Below are positions 4,861-43,937 of a stretch of DNA of 59,754 bases, piece after piece (the stretch's first letter is position 1; each line of letters opens with the position of its first letter). Position numbers and translations under genes: made by a program. The stretch is from Acidobacteriota bacterium. Its GTDB lineage: Bacteria > Acidobacteriota > Vicinamibacteria > Vicinamibacterales > JAFNAJ01. The DNA lies in contig JAHDVP010000034.1 in assembly GCA_023384575.1 (NCBI GenBank), positions 1 through 59,754 of the forward strand. Direction: 5' to 3'. The notes under the pieces are model-generated. The model saw nothing but the letters and a program-made list of their open reading frames with translations, had not been told where the DNA came from and made no database searches.

Positions 4861-4990
4861 CGGCCACCGGCGGGCGACAGCCTGTCGTACAGGCCATGGG
4901 CTGCGACACGGCCACGGCAACGCGACACGGCGGCGCTGTCTCGCCGTGCGCGCGAATCACTGGTTCTGGCGTGTTGTCGAGAGAATTGTT

Positions 4991-5032
4991 TTACTCACTG
5001 TGCTGAGTAACAATACTCATCGTGTTGAGTAA
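4991..5032 (+). promoter_or_regulatory. Phased operator: four ACTCA/TGAGT half-sites, 11 bp apart
   Basis: Half-sites ACTCA start at 4993 and 5015 and their complements TGAGT at 5004 and 5026, so all four are 11 bp apart. They form two perfect dyads, TTACTCA-N6-TGAGTAA (4991-5010) and TACTCA-N6-TGAGTA (5014-5031), repeated with a 22 bp period. The block is markedly AT-richer than its surroundings. The second dyad covers the GTG start at 5022. This looks like a site for a dimeric repressor bound along one face of the helix, possibly the gene's own product or a partner. Confidence 0.75.
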
Positions 5033-6239
5033 TTCAGAAAGTGGCGGCTTCGCCCGGCGACAGGCTGGTGTCCTCGATGCCCGGCTGCGCGAGCCTCGAC
5101 GTTTCATCCAGGTCGTCGGCGGCCCGCGGCAGGTTGGCAAGACGACCCTCGTCTTGCAGGTGCTCGGCCCTTGGGGTCAGCGGGCCCGCTACGCGTCGGC
5201 CGACGAGCCGGCCCTGCGTGACCGTGCCTGGCTCACCGCGCAATGGGAGGGCGCCCGTGCCGCCGCGCGGCAGCCTGGCCATCCGGGTGCGGTGCTCGCC
5301 ATCGACGAGATTCAGAAGATCTCGGGCTGGTCCGAGACGGTGAAGGCGCTGTGGGACGAAGACACCCGCACCGGCGTGCCACTCCAGGTGGTCCTCCTCG
5401 GGTCGTCGCCCCTGCTCGTGCAGCGCGGACTCGGCGACAGCCTCGCCGGCCGCTTCGAGGCGATCGCGCTCGGTCACTGGCGCCTTGCGGAGATGCGCGA
5501 GGCCTTCGGGTTCTCGCTCGACGAGTTCCTGTACTTTGGCGGCTACCCAGGAGCCGCGCCCCTCATCGGCGACCTCGATCGCTGGACTCGCTACGTGCGC
5601 GATGCCCTCGTCGAGACGACAATCGCGCGCGATGTGCTCCTGCTCACGCGCGTCGACAAACCAGGGCTTCTGCGCCAGCTGTTCGACCTGGCCTGCAGGT
5701 ACTCGGGGCAGGTGCTCTCCTTCACGAAGATGCTCGGCCAGTTGCAAGATGCCGGCAACAGTACGACGCTTGCGCACTACCTCGATCTGCTCGGCGCGGC
5801 CGGGATGGTCGTGGGTCTGCAGAAGTACTCCGGCTCAGCCGTGCGACGGCGGGGCTCGATCCCGAAATTGCAGGTGCTCAACACGGCCCTGCTGACGGCG
5901 CTCTCCGGGCTGACGCCAGACGAGGCGCGTGAGCAGCGTGAGTTCCGTGGGCGTCTCGTCGAGTCGGCGGTCGGCGCCCACCTCGCGAACGCCGCGGCAG
6001 CGAATGAGTGCGAGCTCTTCTACTGGCGGGAGGGACAACGCGAGGTCGACTTCGTCGTGACACGCGGGCCCGGCGTGGTCGCTATCGAGGTCAAGTCAGG
6101 GCGGCGCCGCGACGCCCTGCCGGGCCTCGACGCCTTTCTCCGGCGCGTCGAGCACGCGCGGCCGCTGCTCGTCGGCGCCGATGGCGTGAGCCTCGAGGAG
6201 TTCTTCGACACCCCCGTCAGTCACTGGTTCCGTTCGTGA
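5022..6239 (+). CDS. AAA ATPase with DUF4143 domain
   Basis: A 405-residue member of the AAA_14/DUF4143 family. Walker A is GPRQVGKTT (residues 34-42), Walker B is the AIDEIQK segment near 90-96, and a sensor-like LLGSSP follows near 125. The DUF4143 half has YFGGYPGA near 185. The C-terminal core EVDFVV...IEVKSG resembles a PD-(D/E)XK nuclease fold. The family is widespread, often horizontally moved, and its role is not settled; defence, toxin-like and phage-related roles have been suggested. It is a single-gene transcription unit behind the phased operator. The GTG start falls inside the second operator dyad; TTG at 5025 is an alternative. It is bracketed by a 36 bp direct repeat, which suggests insertion. 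Confidence 0.85.
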   Translation: MLSNSESGGFARRQAGVLDARLREPRRFIQVVGGPRQVGKTTLVLQVLGPWGQRARYASADEPALRDRAWLTAQWEGARAAARQPGHPGAVLAIDEIQKISGWSETVKALWDEDTRTGVPLQVVLLGSSPLLVQRGLGDSLAGRFEAIALGHWRLAEMREAFGFSLDEFLYFGGYPGAAPLIGDLDRWTRYVRDALVETTIARDVLLLTRVDKPGLLRQLFDLACRYSGQVLSFTKMLGQLQDAGNSTTLAHYLDLLGAAGMVVGLQKYSGSAVRRRGSIPKLQVLNTALLTALSGLTPDEAREQREFRGRLVESAVGAHLANAAAANECELFYWREGQREVDFVVTRGPGVVAIEVKSGRRRDALPGLDAFLRRVEHARPLLVGADGVSLEEFFDTPVSHWFRS

Positions 6240-10049: not shown

Positions 10050-11930
10050 ATGTGCGGAATCGCGGGCAAGGTGACGAACGGTGGCGACCCCGCCGCCGCT
10101 CGGGTCGTGGTCGAAGCGATGTGCGGCGCCCTCGCCCACCGCGGCCCCGATGGTGCCGGTGTCGAGATCGTCGACGAGGCCGTGCTCGGCCATCGCCGGC
10201 TCGCGATCATCGACCTGTCGGATGCGGCCGCGCAGCCCATGCGCAGCGCCGACGGCCGCGCGGTCGTCGTCTTCAACGGTGAGATCTACAACTTCGGCGA
10301 GCTGCGCCGCGACCTCGAGGGGCTCGGCCACACGTTCCGCACGCGGTCGGACACGGAAGTCCTGCTCGCCGCCTACCGGCAGTGGGGCCGCGACTGCCTG
10401 TCGCGCCTGCGGGGCATGTTCGCCTTCGCCATCTGGGACCGCGACGCGCGGCGGCTGTTCGCCGCGCGCGATCGGCTCGGCAAGAAGCCGTTCCTTTATG
10501 CGGCGACCGACGGCGGGCTGACCTTCGGATCGGAGCTTCGCGCCCTGGTGGCCGATCCGGCCGTCGCGCGCACGCCCGATCCCGATGCCATCAACGACTT
10601 CCTGTCGTACGGCTACGTGCCGGCGCCGCGCACCGGCTTCGCGGGCGTCTCGAAGCTCCCGCCGGCGCACTGGCTGGAATACCAGGAGGGCCGGGTCACA
10701 ACGGGCTGCTACTGGACGCTGTCGTACGAGCCCAAACACGATCTGTCCGACGATGAGGCGGCGGAGGGCGTGCTCGCGCGCCTGCGCGAAGCCGTGGCCC
10801 TGCGCCTGATCAGCGACGTGCCGCTCGGCGCCTTCCTCTCTGGCGGCGTCGACTCGTCGGTGGTCGTCGCCCTCATGGCCGAGCATGGCGCCGTGCGCAC
10901 CTTCTCGATTGGCTTCGAGGAGAAGGAGTACGACGAGCGCCAGTACGCGCGGGCCGTGGCGCGGCACTGCGCGACCGAGCACGAGGAGTTCGTCGTGCGG
11001 CCCGCCGTCGAGGACCTGCTGCCGTCGCTCGTCCGTCACTACGGCGAGCCTTACGCCGACTCTTCGGCCATCCCCACCTGGTATCTGGCGCAGATGACCC
11101 GTCGTCACGTGACCGTCGCGCTCAATGGCGACGGCGGCGACGAGTCGTTCGGTGGGTACGAGCGGTACCTCGCCGCGGTCGTGGCCGGCCGGACGGAGCG
11201 CGTGCCGCGCTGGGTGCGCCGCGCCGGTTCGCGCGCGGTCAAGCTCGTGAACCGGCGGCCACGCAAGGATGCCCTGCTGCACCGGCTCGACCGGTTCTTC
11301 GAGGCGCTCGACGAGACGCCGCCCCGCCGCTACGGCCGCTGGGTCGGGTATTTCTCGAACCCCCAGAAGGCCGCGCTGCTGACACCGGCGTTCGCCGAAC
11401 GCCTCGTGAGGCCCGACTCGATGCAGGCGCTCGACGACGCGTATGCCGCCGGCGACGCGCGCGCCCTGCTCGACAAGACAATGCACGCCGACGTGTTGAC
11501 GTACCTGCCGGGCGACCTGCTGCCCAAGGTCGACATCGCGTCGATGGCGCACTCGCTCGAGGCGCGGTCGCCGCTGCTCGACCACGAGGTCGTGGAGTTC
11601 TGCGCGCGGCTGCCCGTGTCGATGAAGGTCCGGGGACGGACGACCAAGTACCTGCTGAAGAAGATCGCGCGCACGCTCGTGCCCGCCGAGGTCGTCGACC
11701 GGCCGAAGCGGGGCTTCGGGGTGCCCGTGGACCACTGGCTGCGCGCGGAGCTGCGCGAACTGGCCGACGACTGCCTCTTCTCGCCGCGTGCCTCGGGACG
11801 GGGCTACTTCGAGCCCGCGCTCGTCCGCCAGGTCTGGCAGCGTCACCAGGACGGCACCGGGCGCTACCAGCACCTGCTCTGGAACCTGCTGATGCTCGAG
11901 CTGTGGCACAGGGAGTTCATCGACTCGTGA
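10050..11930 (+). CDS. asnB: Glutamine-dependent asparagine synthase (AsnB type)
   Basis: A 626-residue class II glutamine amidotransferase. Cys2 (after Met removal the N-terminal nucleophile) releases ammonia from glutamine in the first ~220 residues, shown by MCGIAGK, HRGPDG and NGEIYN. The synthetase half has the ATP-pyrophosphatase loop SGGVDSS at 264-270 and the later NGDGGDE and SIGFEEKEYDE segments. Length and motifs fit AsnB. Inside a polysaccharide cluster such proteins may amidate a sugar acid instead of aspartate, as WbpS-like enzymes are proposed to do; sequence alone does not decide. The start is preceded by CGGAGACC. It overlaps the next gene by 4 bp (GTGA), heading a four-gene operon 10050-15449. 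Confidence 0.9.
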   Translation: MCGIAGKVTNGGDPAAARVVVEAMCGALAHRGPDGAGVEIVDEAVLGHRRLAIIDLSDAAAQPMRSADGRAVVVFNGEIYNFGELRRDLEGLGHTFRTRSDTEVLLAAYRQWGRDCLSRLRGMFAFAIWDRDARRLFAARDRLGKKPFLYAATDGGLTFGSELRALVADPAVARTPDPDAINDFLSYGYVPAPRTGFAGVSKLPPAHWLEYQEGRVTTGCYWTLSYEPKHDLSDDEAAEGVLARLREAVALRLISDVPLGAFLSGGVDSSVVVALMAEHGAVRTFSIGFEEKEYDERQYARAVARHCATEHEEFVVRPAVEDLLPSLVRHYGEPYADSSAIPTWYLAQMTRRHVTVALNGDGGDESFGGYERYLAAVVAGRTERVPRWVRRAGSRAVKLVNRRPRKDALLHRLDRFFEALDETPPRRYGRWVGYFSNPQKAALLTPAFAERLVRPDSMQALDDAYAAGDARALLDKTMHADVLTYLPGDLLPKVDIASMAHSLEARSPLLDHEVVEFCARLPVSMKVRGRTTKYLLKKIARTLVPAEVVDRPKRGFGVPVDHWLRAELRELADDCLFSPRASGRGYFEPALVRQVWQRHQDGTGRYQHLLWNLLMLELWHREFIDS

Positions 11931-42299: not shown

Positions 42300-42660
42300 C
42301 GCGTCCAGCGTTCCCAGACCGAGCAGCGATTGAGAACCGGCTTGGGGTGTCCGTCGCCGGTCGAAGCGGAACGCGAACTCGTCGAGGTACACCTGCAGGT
42401 ACTTGCGCCCGACGCGATGGTGCGTCCCACGCAACCAGGTTCGGAGTTTCCGAACACGCGATGCAGGCGGGGGAGCAACTTGGCGGCCCGTCGGGATCCG
42501 CTCCGCGCGTGCGGGGACGATGTCGAAAGCCGAGGCTCCCCTGTGGCGCGTGCCCTTGCCAGCCGTTCGTCCGCACCACGCTCCGGGGTTCGACCTGCCG
42601 CTGCACGAAGCCCGTCAGCGACCCGGCCGACGCGTCGGGCACCACCTTCGTACGCGACGC
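42300..42660 (-). pseudogene. IS1595-type transposase remnant, frameshifted
   Basis: On the minus strand three frames give consecutive parts of an ISXO2/IS1595-type transposase end. First is VVPDASAGSLTGFVQ followed by VVRTNGWQGHAP near 42650-42570, then LLPRLHRVFGN near 42450, then RGTHHRVGRKYLQVYLDEF and AFRFDRRRTP near 42430-42350. At least two frameshifts separate them and the 5' half is missing. No terminal inverted repeats were identified. Confidence 0.8.
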
Positions 42661-42689: not shown

Positions 42690-43172
42690 TCAGAGTTGCC
42701 AGAGGCCGTATTGAATGCCCCCCTGGAAGTAGATGGCAAACTTACCGTGGCCGGGGACTTCCGTGGGATACATCGCGAAATCAGCACCAGCCGCGTCCGC
42801 TGCCTTCACAGCAGCCTCGATGTCATCTACCAAGACATAGGGCCGTACGACGGGGTCCTCGTCCTCCCGCATCGGCGCGCGCACGCCGATGCGACCGCCG
42901 CTCTTCAGTGACGCTGTGCGGGCATTACCAAGCATCGCCTCTGGCTCGCCGAAGCTAATCCCGTGCAACTTCTCCAAGGCAGAGCACGTCGCGTCCACGT
43001 CGGCGGTCACGACTTCAAGGTACTGGATCAGCATAGTTCGCTCCCTAGTGGAAGGTTGGGCGTCAGATGCGTCCGAATCCTCAGGACCCTGGACATTGGG
43101 AACGCAAGCACACAGAACAAGCGCCGATGCGAGCAGCGCAAGGACGGACCGGAGGGTCAAAGCAGCTCTCAT
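42690..43172 (-). CDS. VOC-domain protein with lipoprotein leader, integron-cassette-like
   Basis: A 160-residue protein from the ATG at 43172. Residues 1-22 are a lipoprotein signal: RAALTLRS, a Leu/Ala core and the lipobox LCAC. A 25-residue acidic linker leads to a glyoxalase/VOC beta-alpha-beta-beta-beta domain (LIQYLEVVTADVDATCSALEK, RPYVLVDDIEAAVKAADAAGADFA, FQGGIQYGLWQL, given in blocks). A cytoplasmic version could start at the ATG at 43034, which has AGGGAG upstream. The attC site lies 66 bp before the first start, so the gene is placed as an integron cassette. Its own attC is missing: the IS1595-type remnant begins right after the stop. VOC proteins are diverse metalloenzymes or resistance proteins; substrate unknown. 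Confidence 0.75.
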   Translation of the reverse strand: MRAALTLRSVLALLASALVLCACVPNVQGPEDSDASDAQPSTRERTMLIQYLEVVTADVDATCSALEKLHGISFGEPEAMLGNARTASLKSGGRIGVRAPMREDEDPVVRPYVLVDDIEAAVKAADAAGADFAMYPTEVPGHGKFAIYFQGGIQYGLWQL

Positions 43173-43237
43173 TCTTGAGTCTCCACGCAGAGTAGTACCC
43201 ATGCGAAACCCGACTGCGGTGCAAAGCACCTCTGGCG

Positions 43238-43311
43238 GTCCAACGTTCGCGCTTCAGCCGCGGCGGCTCAGGATCGCACCAGCCGCCGTCGGCTGCAACC
43301 GCTGGTTGGAC
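43238..43311 (-). other. attC: Integron attC recombination site
   Basis: Seventy-four bp with perfect 7 bp ends, GTCCAAC (R'') and GTTGGAC (R'), read on the minus strand. Inside, TTGCAGCCG pairs with CGGCTGAA, leaving one extrahelical G. The stem continues CAGCCG(A)CGGCGGCT with AGCCGCCGCGGCTG, leaving a bulged A, around a 12 nt loop. Unpaired spacers of 6 and 8 nt separate the outer and inner stems. These are the features of an attC site, with the extra bases placing R' at the 43238 end. The frame through it reads NQRLQPTAAG, a stretch often translated from attC sites. Confidence 0.85.
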
Positions 43312-43314
43312 TGA

Positions 43315-43331
43315 ATCCGCCTGCGGCGGAT
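43315..43331. repeat. Hairpin ATCCGCC-TGC-GGCGGAT
   Basis: A perfect 7 bp stem with a 3 nt loop, just beside the attC site on the side of the preceding cassette position. Confidence 0.5.
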
Positions 43332-43462
43332 AGATGAAATCCATGCCTGCACGTCTCTGTTGATCCGCCTGCCTGCATGACGAGGATCTCCCTCCCAGGA
43401 GGCTGCCACCTCCCTGGAAAAGAGACCGTCATGACCCGTCTGCGACAACGGAGGCTGGCGGA

Positions 43463-43576
43463 TATCCACGCGATGTACGCGTCCTCGGTGCGCCGGCCGT
43501 AGTGCCGCAGTCGAGTGGCTTCGCGGACACGATCGAGCACACGCGGCGGTCGCTGCGGCTCCTCTGTGGCGTGCAT
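43463..43576 (-). pseudogene. N-terminal fragment of an integron-type integrase
   Basis: The ATG at 43576 opens a frame reading PPRVLDRVREATRLRHYG and RRTEDAYIAWI. This is the SAM-like N-terminal core-binding region of IntI-type tyrosine recombinases, where LRxRHYSxRTExAYxxWI is typical. After about 38 codons the similarity stops and no catalytic R-H-R-Y part is present. The fragment lies ~150 bp before the attC site and in the same orientation as the cassette, whereas in most integrons intI points away from the array. Confidence 0.75.
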
Positions 43577-43937
43577 GCCGCCCGCCCGTCAGAGAAGCGT
43601 GCCACCTCGAAGGGGCCGCCAACACCGGCCCGGGCACCGACACTGCCGGAGGTACCGCAGGGAGTGCACAGGGCATCCACCCCGCTGAGTGCAGATAGTG
43701 CGACGACCGCGCGCCGGGAAGAACCCGTCGCATCGCGGGCGCCACCGTGCGTGCCCTCGGCCCGATGCCTCACGACGGCTGGCGGCTCGCGGTGAGCGGC
43801 GCCGCACGCCGTGACGTGGCGGAGTCAGCCCCTGGCGGAACCTCACCAGGCGCAAGACGAAAATCCCGGAGCCATTGGGGCAGAACGCCGTGCAGACCAG
43901 GAGTCCGCAGCCTACAGCCGCGCTGTCGGATTGGGCG
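43577..43937. other. 361 bp without a recognised gene
   Basis: Lies between the integrase fragment and the MacB-type permease gene. Several short frames are open but none shows family similarity. A GCAGCCTACAGCC word near 43907 is related to the dispersed heptamer repeat. Base composition is less GC-biased than in the flanking operons. Confidence 0.5.

What the first reader, a model, noticed from the sequence alone, without database searches (positions are those of the whole stretch)
42690..43311. Single integron cassette: attC site followed by a VOC-domain lipoprotein gene
A 74 bp attC with perfect 7 bp ends, an extrahelical G and a bulged A sits 66 bp before the VOC gene on the same strand, as if the gene were a cassette. 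Integrons are not well described for this type of genome. The gene's unusual fusion of lipobox leader and VOC domain would fit a captured cassette.
Basis: partly seen in the sequence, partly recalled or inferred. Interest (0 to 1): 0.75.

Follow-up and report, generated by a model that had tools for sequence, protein, structure and literature searches.

The report
Broken integron remnant beside lipoprotein gene
The site is a real integron recombination site (attC) left from a broken second integron in an Acidobacteriota genome that also keeps an intact integron, and the gene next to it belongs to a small protein family that travels as an integron cassette in other bacteria; this is a new example of a known kind of system.

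Summary
Observation confirmed. The 74-bp attC at 43238-43311 is genuine and reads canonically on the minus strand. A covariance model built from five other attCs of the same genome, with this site held out, scores it 79.4 bits (E 5.5e-19 genome-wide, third best; opposite strand 24.5 bits). The genome holds 14 strong attCs and an intact integron integrase (435 bits) whose contig overlaps a contig carrying a toxin-antitoxin cassette array.

"Single cassette" is only partly right. The attC lies upstream of the gene, so formally it ends a lost preceding cassette. The gene has no attC of its own: an IS1595 transposase remnant begins about 30 bp after its stop. The whole looks like the wreck of a second integron.

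The small VOC family is cassette-borne elsewhere: in a gammaproteobacterial MAG it sits between two attCs. The lipobox leader is not unusual: about 36 of 80 homologues carry export leaders, mostly Planctomycetota.

Integrons are common in this order (58 of 161 genomes). In 14 of 17 scorable loci the integrase reads toward the array, an atypical layout known from Treponema. New member of a known kind.

The parts
43238..43311 (-). attC site, 74 bp, canonical direction on the minus strand; closes a preceding cassette that is now lost
   Evidence: held-out CM 79.4 bits, E 5.5e-19; DNA fold z -5.8; covariation over 25 sites
42690..43172 (-). VOC lipoprotein gene, 160 aa, ATG with GGAGA upstream, no attC behind it
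   Evidence: VOC fold by structure; profile match to Rv0577
43035..43172 (-). lipoprotein leader, lipobox LCAC, 46 aa
   Evidence: sequence; similar leaders in about 36 of 80 homologues
42693..43034 (-). VOC domain, 114 aa
   Evidence: alignment of 47 homologues, AlphaFold2 model pLDDT 95.1
43463..43576 (-). N-terminal stub of an integron integrase gene
   Evidence: 50% identity to residues 1-36 of the genome's own IntI, E 1.3e-6; 75-79% to IntI of relatives, E about 1e-12
43312..43462 (-). remains of the preceding cassette; the last 27 bp or so match the ends of other cassettes
   Evidence: 87% over 55 bp with C21 and 90% over 86 bp with G053
42360..42660 (-). decayed IS1595 (ISXO2-like) transposase domain, 5' part missing, frame-shifted
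   Evidence: PF12762 positions 130-153, E 3e-6; positions 52-100, E 0.03, weak

Best explanation
This is the decayed remnant of a second chromosomal integron. Shown: an integrase N-terminal stub, an intact attC and a VOC lipoprotein gene lie in that order on one strand, and an IS1595 remnant abuts the gene. Inferred: an integrase of the 'toward' layout once stood here; the array held at least two cassettes, the first now reduced to its attC, the second carrying the VOC gene. A deletion removed most of the integrase and of the first cassette, and an IS-linked rearrangement removed the attC of the VOC cassette, so the VOC gene can no longer be excised as a cassette on its own. The remaining attC keeps the known functional features; folded as a single strand it could still recombine with other attC or attI sites through the intact IntI encoded on C37. 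The VOC protein is predicted to be a lipid-anchored binding or enzyme domain of unknown substrate.
For: attC. Intact IntI in the genome. Integrase stub. Orientation of the stub matches the majority layout of the order (14 of 17 loci). VOC family as a true cassette between two attCs in L136 and beside attCs in several phyla. attC upstream of the gene in 4 of 6 carriers of the order. IS remnant about 30 bp after the VOC stop, beginning inside the transposase domain.
Against: No attC behind the VOC gene here or in the three other Acidobacteriota carriers, so its cassette status in this genome is not shown directly. The closest exported homologues in Planctomycetota are not next to attCs. A motif test over 80 loci gave no excess of attC starts behind the gene. 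The integrase stub is only about 38 residues, and the 5' part of the IS match is weak.
Confidence: 0.65

Rival explanations
1. The attC marks the far end of an old array and the VOC gene is ordinary flanking chromosome, or arrived by another route, and was never a cassette here.
For: No attC behind the gene in four of four Acidobacteriota cases; nearest exported homologues lie in ordinary chromosomal settings.
Against: The gene family is a true cassette in L136 and beside attCs in several phyla; downstream neighbours differ in all four Acidobacteriota cases, so the gene is not a fixed chromosomal flank.
Confidence: 0.28
2. A single cassette was inserted by IntI at a non-integron site elsewhere in the chromosome (a lone attC), and the integrase stub is unrelated debris.
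For: Lone or scattered attCs occur on five other contigs, and an active-looking IntI is present.
Against: Such an insertion gives gene then attC, the reverse of the order seen; the integrase stub in the expected place and direction would be a coincidence.
Confidence: 0.06
3. The element is a chance palindrome or another dispersed repeat, not an attC.
For: GC-rich palindromes are frequent in such genomes.
Against: Held-out model score, strand asymmetry (79.4 against 24.5 bits), covariation, and members lying next to integrases in 17 relatives.
Confidence: 0.01

Closest known systems
Chromosomal integrons of Acidobacteria (attC model in PMC8352920)
   Same: attC sequence and structure type, integrase family TIGR02249, cassette arrays
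   Different: the window locus has only an integrase stub and one attC; the published model itself could not be run here
CALIN / lone attC sites (IntegronFinder 2.0, PMC9024848)
   Same: attC without a neighbouring complete integrase
   Different: CALIN is reported by default only from two attCs; here there is one, plus an integrase remnant
Treponema chromosomal integrons with intI transcribed toward attI (PMC3607928)
   Same: integrase and array read in the same direction
   Different: other phylum; here the integrase is broken and attI was not identified at the window locus
Rv0577 (TB27.3, PDB 3oxh) and other VOC proteins
   Same: VOC fold; profile E 9e-14, Foldseek TM 0.78 over the query
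   Different: Rv0577 is a longer protein (251 residues in the structure); this family has one 114-residue domain, often with an export leader; about 20% identity

Membership tests
attC site | complementary R'' (RYYYAAC) and R' (GTTRRRY) ends | tested here: met
   GTCCAAC / GTTGGAC, perfect
attC site | single-strand hairpin with extrahelical bases on the L'' arm, giving a strand preference | tested here: met
   fold z -5.8; R1 79.4 bits on minus, 24.5 on plus strand
attC site | recombination by IntI at G^TT | not testable with these tools
   needs an assay; an intact IntI with its catalytic motifs is in the genome
complete integron (intI + attI + cassettes) | intact integrase gene next to the array | tested here: not met
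   only an N-terminal stub at 43463-43576; the intact integrase is on C37
complete integron (intI + attI + cassettes) | attI site | tested here: inconclusive
   no attI recognised by reading the locus; attI has no strong consensus
gene cassette (VOC) | gene followed by its own attC | tested here: not met
   no attC match within the 3' flank (best window hit there 11.8 bits); met for the homologue in L136
VOC superfamily | VOC fold | tested here: met
   AlphaFold2 pLDDT 95.1; Foldseek E about 1e-8 to VOC structures
VOC superfamily | metal site or catalytic residues | not tested
   Y5, E7 and R52 are among the invariant residues, but no ligand assignment was attempted
bacterial lipoprotein | signal peptide with lipobox cysteine | tested here: inconclusive
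   LVLCAC after a hydrophobic stretch by reading; no signal-peptide predictor was available; similar leaders in homologues

The most novel reading that the evidence does not exclude
In Acidobacteriota the VOC gene recurs behind the last attC of an array, without an attC of its own, in four genomes with different downstream genes; it may therefore be carried with array ends by a route other than ordinary cassette exchange, in both cytosolic and lipoprotein forms.
Probability: 0.12. Interest if true: 0.55.

Novelty: new member of a known kind. Interest (0 to 1): 0.3.

Why it matters
It shows that integrons are common equipment in this Acidobacteriota order (58 of 161 genomes) and mostly use the atypical layout with the integrase facing its array, so attI sites and cassette promoters there should be sought behind the integrase. 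It also names a small VOC family, including probably lipid-anchored forms, that moves between phyla partly as integron cassettes.

Tried and rejected
Rfam scan of the window: no match at gathering scores. A loose home-made hairpin scan for attCs gave too many chance hits to use; an apparent attC in L081 proved to lie in the end of a coding gene. My first idea that the lipobox leader was unique to the window was wrong: the order relatives lack it, but about 36 of 80 wider homologues have one. NCBIfam gave nothing for the VOC protein. A motif test for attC ends around the gene in 80 loci was mildly positive upstream (11 against 5 on the other strand) and negative downstream (5 against 6), so most homologues are not in cassettes. 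No other copy of the IS remnant was found in the genome by DNA.

Full report
Observation. The 74-bp element at 43238-43311 is present as described. It is nearly palindromic, so direction matters: on the minus strand it reads GTCCAAC-CAGCGGTT-GCAGCCG-A-CGGCGGCT...AGCCGCCG-CGGCTGAAGCGCGAAC-GTTGGAC, the canonical R''-L''-L'-R' order with an extrahelical G and a bulged A on the 5' arm. The minus strand folds better, as DNA, than all 200 shuffles (z -5.8; plus strand -4.5).

Independent attC test. A DNA search with the site found attC-like sequences on contigs C98 and C1 of the same genome. Five of these, without the window site, were aligned and made into covariance model R1. R1 scores the window site 79.4 bits, E 5.5e-19 over the 5.9-Mb genome, third best after two of its own seeds; the plus strand of the same site gets only 24.5 bits. 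The genome has 14 strong sites (36.8 bits or more), and the next match is at 23.6 bits. A model from 25 sites, R2, repeats this with a clean gap between 49 and 24 bits (R2 includes the window site). Over the 25 sites, 16 of 24 pairs show changes on both sides, and the covariation score is 0.419 against 0.126 in shuffles and at most 0.058 in slid controls (the alignment was fitted to the structure, which favours it).

The genome's own integron. TIGR02249 finds one integrase over cut-off, C37:53743-54687, 435 bits. The end of C37 and the start of C98 (minus strand) share 55 identical bases, so the two contigs very likely adjoin: integrase, attI region, then attCs separating DUF5615/DUF433, BrnT/BrnA and helix-turn-helix antitoxin cassettes. 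C1 carries a two-attC array with HEPN/AbiU2 and DUF2569 genes. Other attCs are scattered on C21, C43, C54, C68 and C81.

The window locus. On the minus strand, in order: an integrase N-terminal stub at 43576-43463 (50% identity to residues 1-36 of the own IntI, E 1.3e-6; 75-79% to IntI of relatives); about 150 bp of remains, the last 27 bp of which match other cassette ends; the attC; 65 bp; the VOC gene (ATG 43172, stop 42690-42692); then, about 30 bp further, a decayed IS1595 transposase domain (PF12762 positions 52-100, weak, E 0.03, and 130-153, E 3e-6). The transposase match begins inside its domain, which points to a deletion or rearrangement at this junction (inference). Chromosomal genes on the two sides are a sigma-factor/anti-sigma pair and a MacB-type permease. 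From the known chemistry of integrons (cleavage G^TT in R'), an inserted cassette ends with its attC; the window attC therefore closes a cassette that stood before it, and the VOC gene would begin the next one, whose attC is missing.

The VOC family. Six of 162 genomes of the order have it. Four of the six have attC upstream on the same strand: this one; G059 (attC 11030-11103 with the gene right behind, R' box altered to GTCAGGC); G098 (five attCs, then a toxin-antitoxin cassette and, by eye, a degenerate attC about 40 bp before the gene); G156 (attC, ankyrin-like gene, then by eye a half attC and a truncated BrnT start). None has an attC behind the gene. In public genomes the family is spread over many phyla at 52-75% identity to the window protein. 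With R2, attCs on the same strand occur near it in L143, L119, L147, L144, L156 and L136. L136, a gammaproteobacterial MAG, is decisive for the family: attC 4880-4977, gene 5001-5342, attC 5356-5427. Nitrosospira sp. NpAV (L133) and, less surely, Vibrio and Enterovibrio loci show attC ends beside the gene by eye. A simple motif test over all 80 loci was only mildly positive upstream and negative downstream, so most homologues are not in cassettes.

The leader. About 36 of 80 homologues have an in-frame leader with a hydrophobic stretch or lipobox, mostly Planctomycetota (my classification, partly by eye). The window protein groups with five of them, support 98/91, while G059, G098 and G156 fall elsewhere among forms without leader. 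So the window gene probably came from a Planctomycetota-like donor, separately from the other Acidobacteriota copies (inference; the alignment is short and many forks are unresolved).

Function. The AlphaFold2 model is confident (pLDDT 95.1) and matches VOC proteins: RHA04853, Rv0577, the mitomycin-binding MRD protein, methylmalonyl-CoA epimerase; by profile the nearest is Rv0577 (E 9e-14). VOC proteins include metal enzymes and drug-binding proteins; the substrate here is unknown. A lipid-anchored binding or detoxifying protein at the cell envelope is my best guess, with low confidence.

Integrons in this order. With TIGR02249 at E <= 1e-60, 58 of 161 genomes have an integrase and 0 of 14 controls. 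Of 30 integrase loci, 17 have an attC within the stretch read: 14 behind the integrase on the same strand, 3 divergent (the tally is mine). The window remnant follows the majority layout. That layout is called atypical in Treponema (PMC3607928). Acidobacteria attCs were modelled in 2021 (PMC8352920), so integrons in this phylum are known.

Verdict. A genuine attC in a broken second integron, next to a gene of a family that is cassette-borne elsewhere: a new member of a known kind, of moderate to low interest.

Noticed in passing
L160-L188 (integrase loci of the order): In 14 of 17 loci with an attC in reach, the integrase reads toward the array; in 3 (L174, L185, L188) it is divergent as in textbook integrons. 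Both layouts coexist in one order.
   Followed up: partly
L040 (contig C98) 3490-5668: The intact integron's first cassettes are toxin-antitoxin pairs (DUF5615/DUF433, BrnT/BrnA, a HTH antitoxin), the first with its genes against the array direction.
   Followed up: partly
L040 2307-2383 and 1837-2280 (minus): A weak, degenerate attC (24 bits) is followed by another small VOC/PhnB-like gene, an arrangement like that of the window.
   Followed up: no
L041 8451-9864 (contig C1): Two attCs with an AbiU2/HEPN gene (possible phage defence) in the cassette, next to genes that look like a conjugation or secretion system.
   Followed up: no
window 43315-43338; L051; L190: A small inverted repeat ATCCGCC-GCA-GGCGGAT lies directly before the attC and similar sequence ends other cassettes; it could be a terminator shared by cassettes.
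   Followed up: no
window 43763-43933: A stretch of about 170 bp matches four other contigs of the genome (C32, C22, C42, C2) at 70-74%: an unidentified repeat.
   Followed up: no
L147 upstream of 5001: A lipobox leader precedes the VOC domain but in another frame, as if by a one-base shift; real or assembly error is unknown.
   Followed up: no
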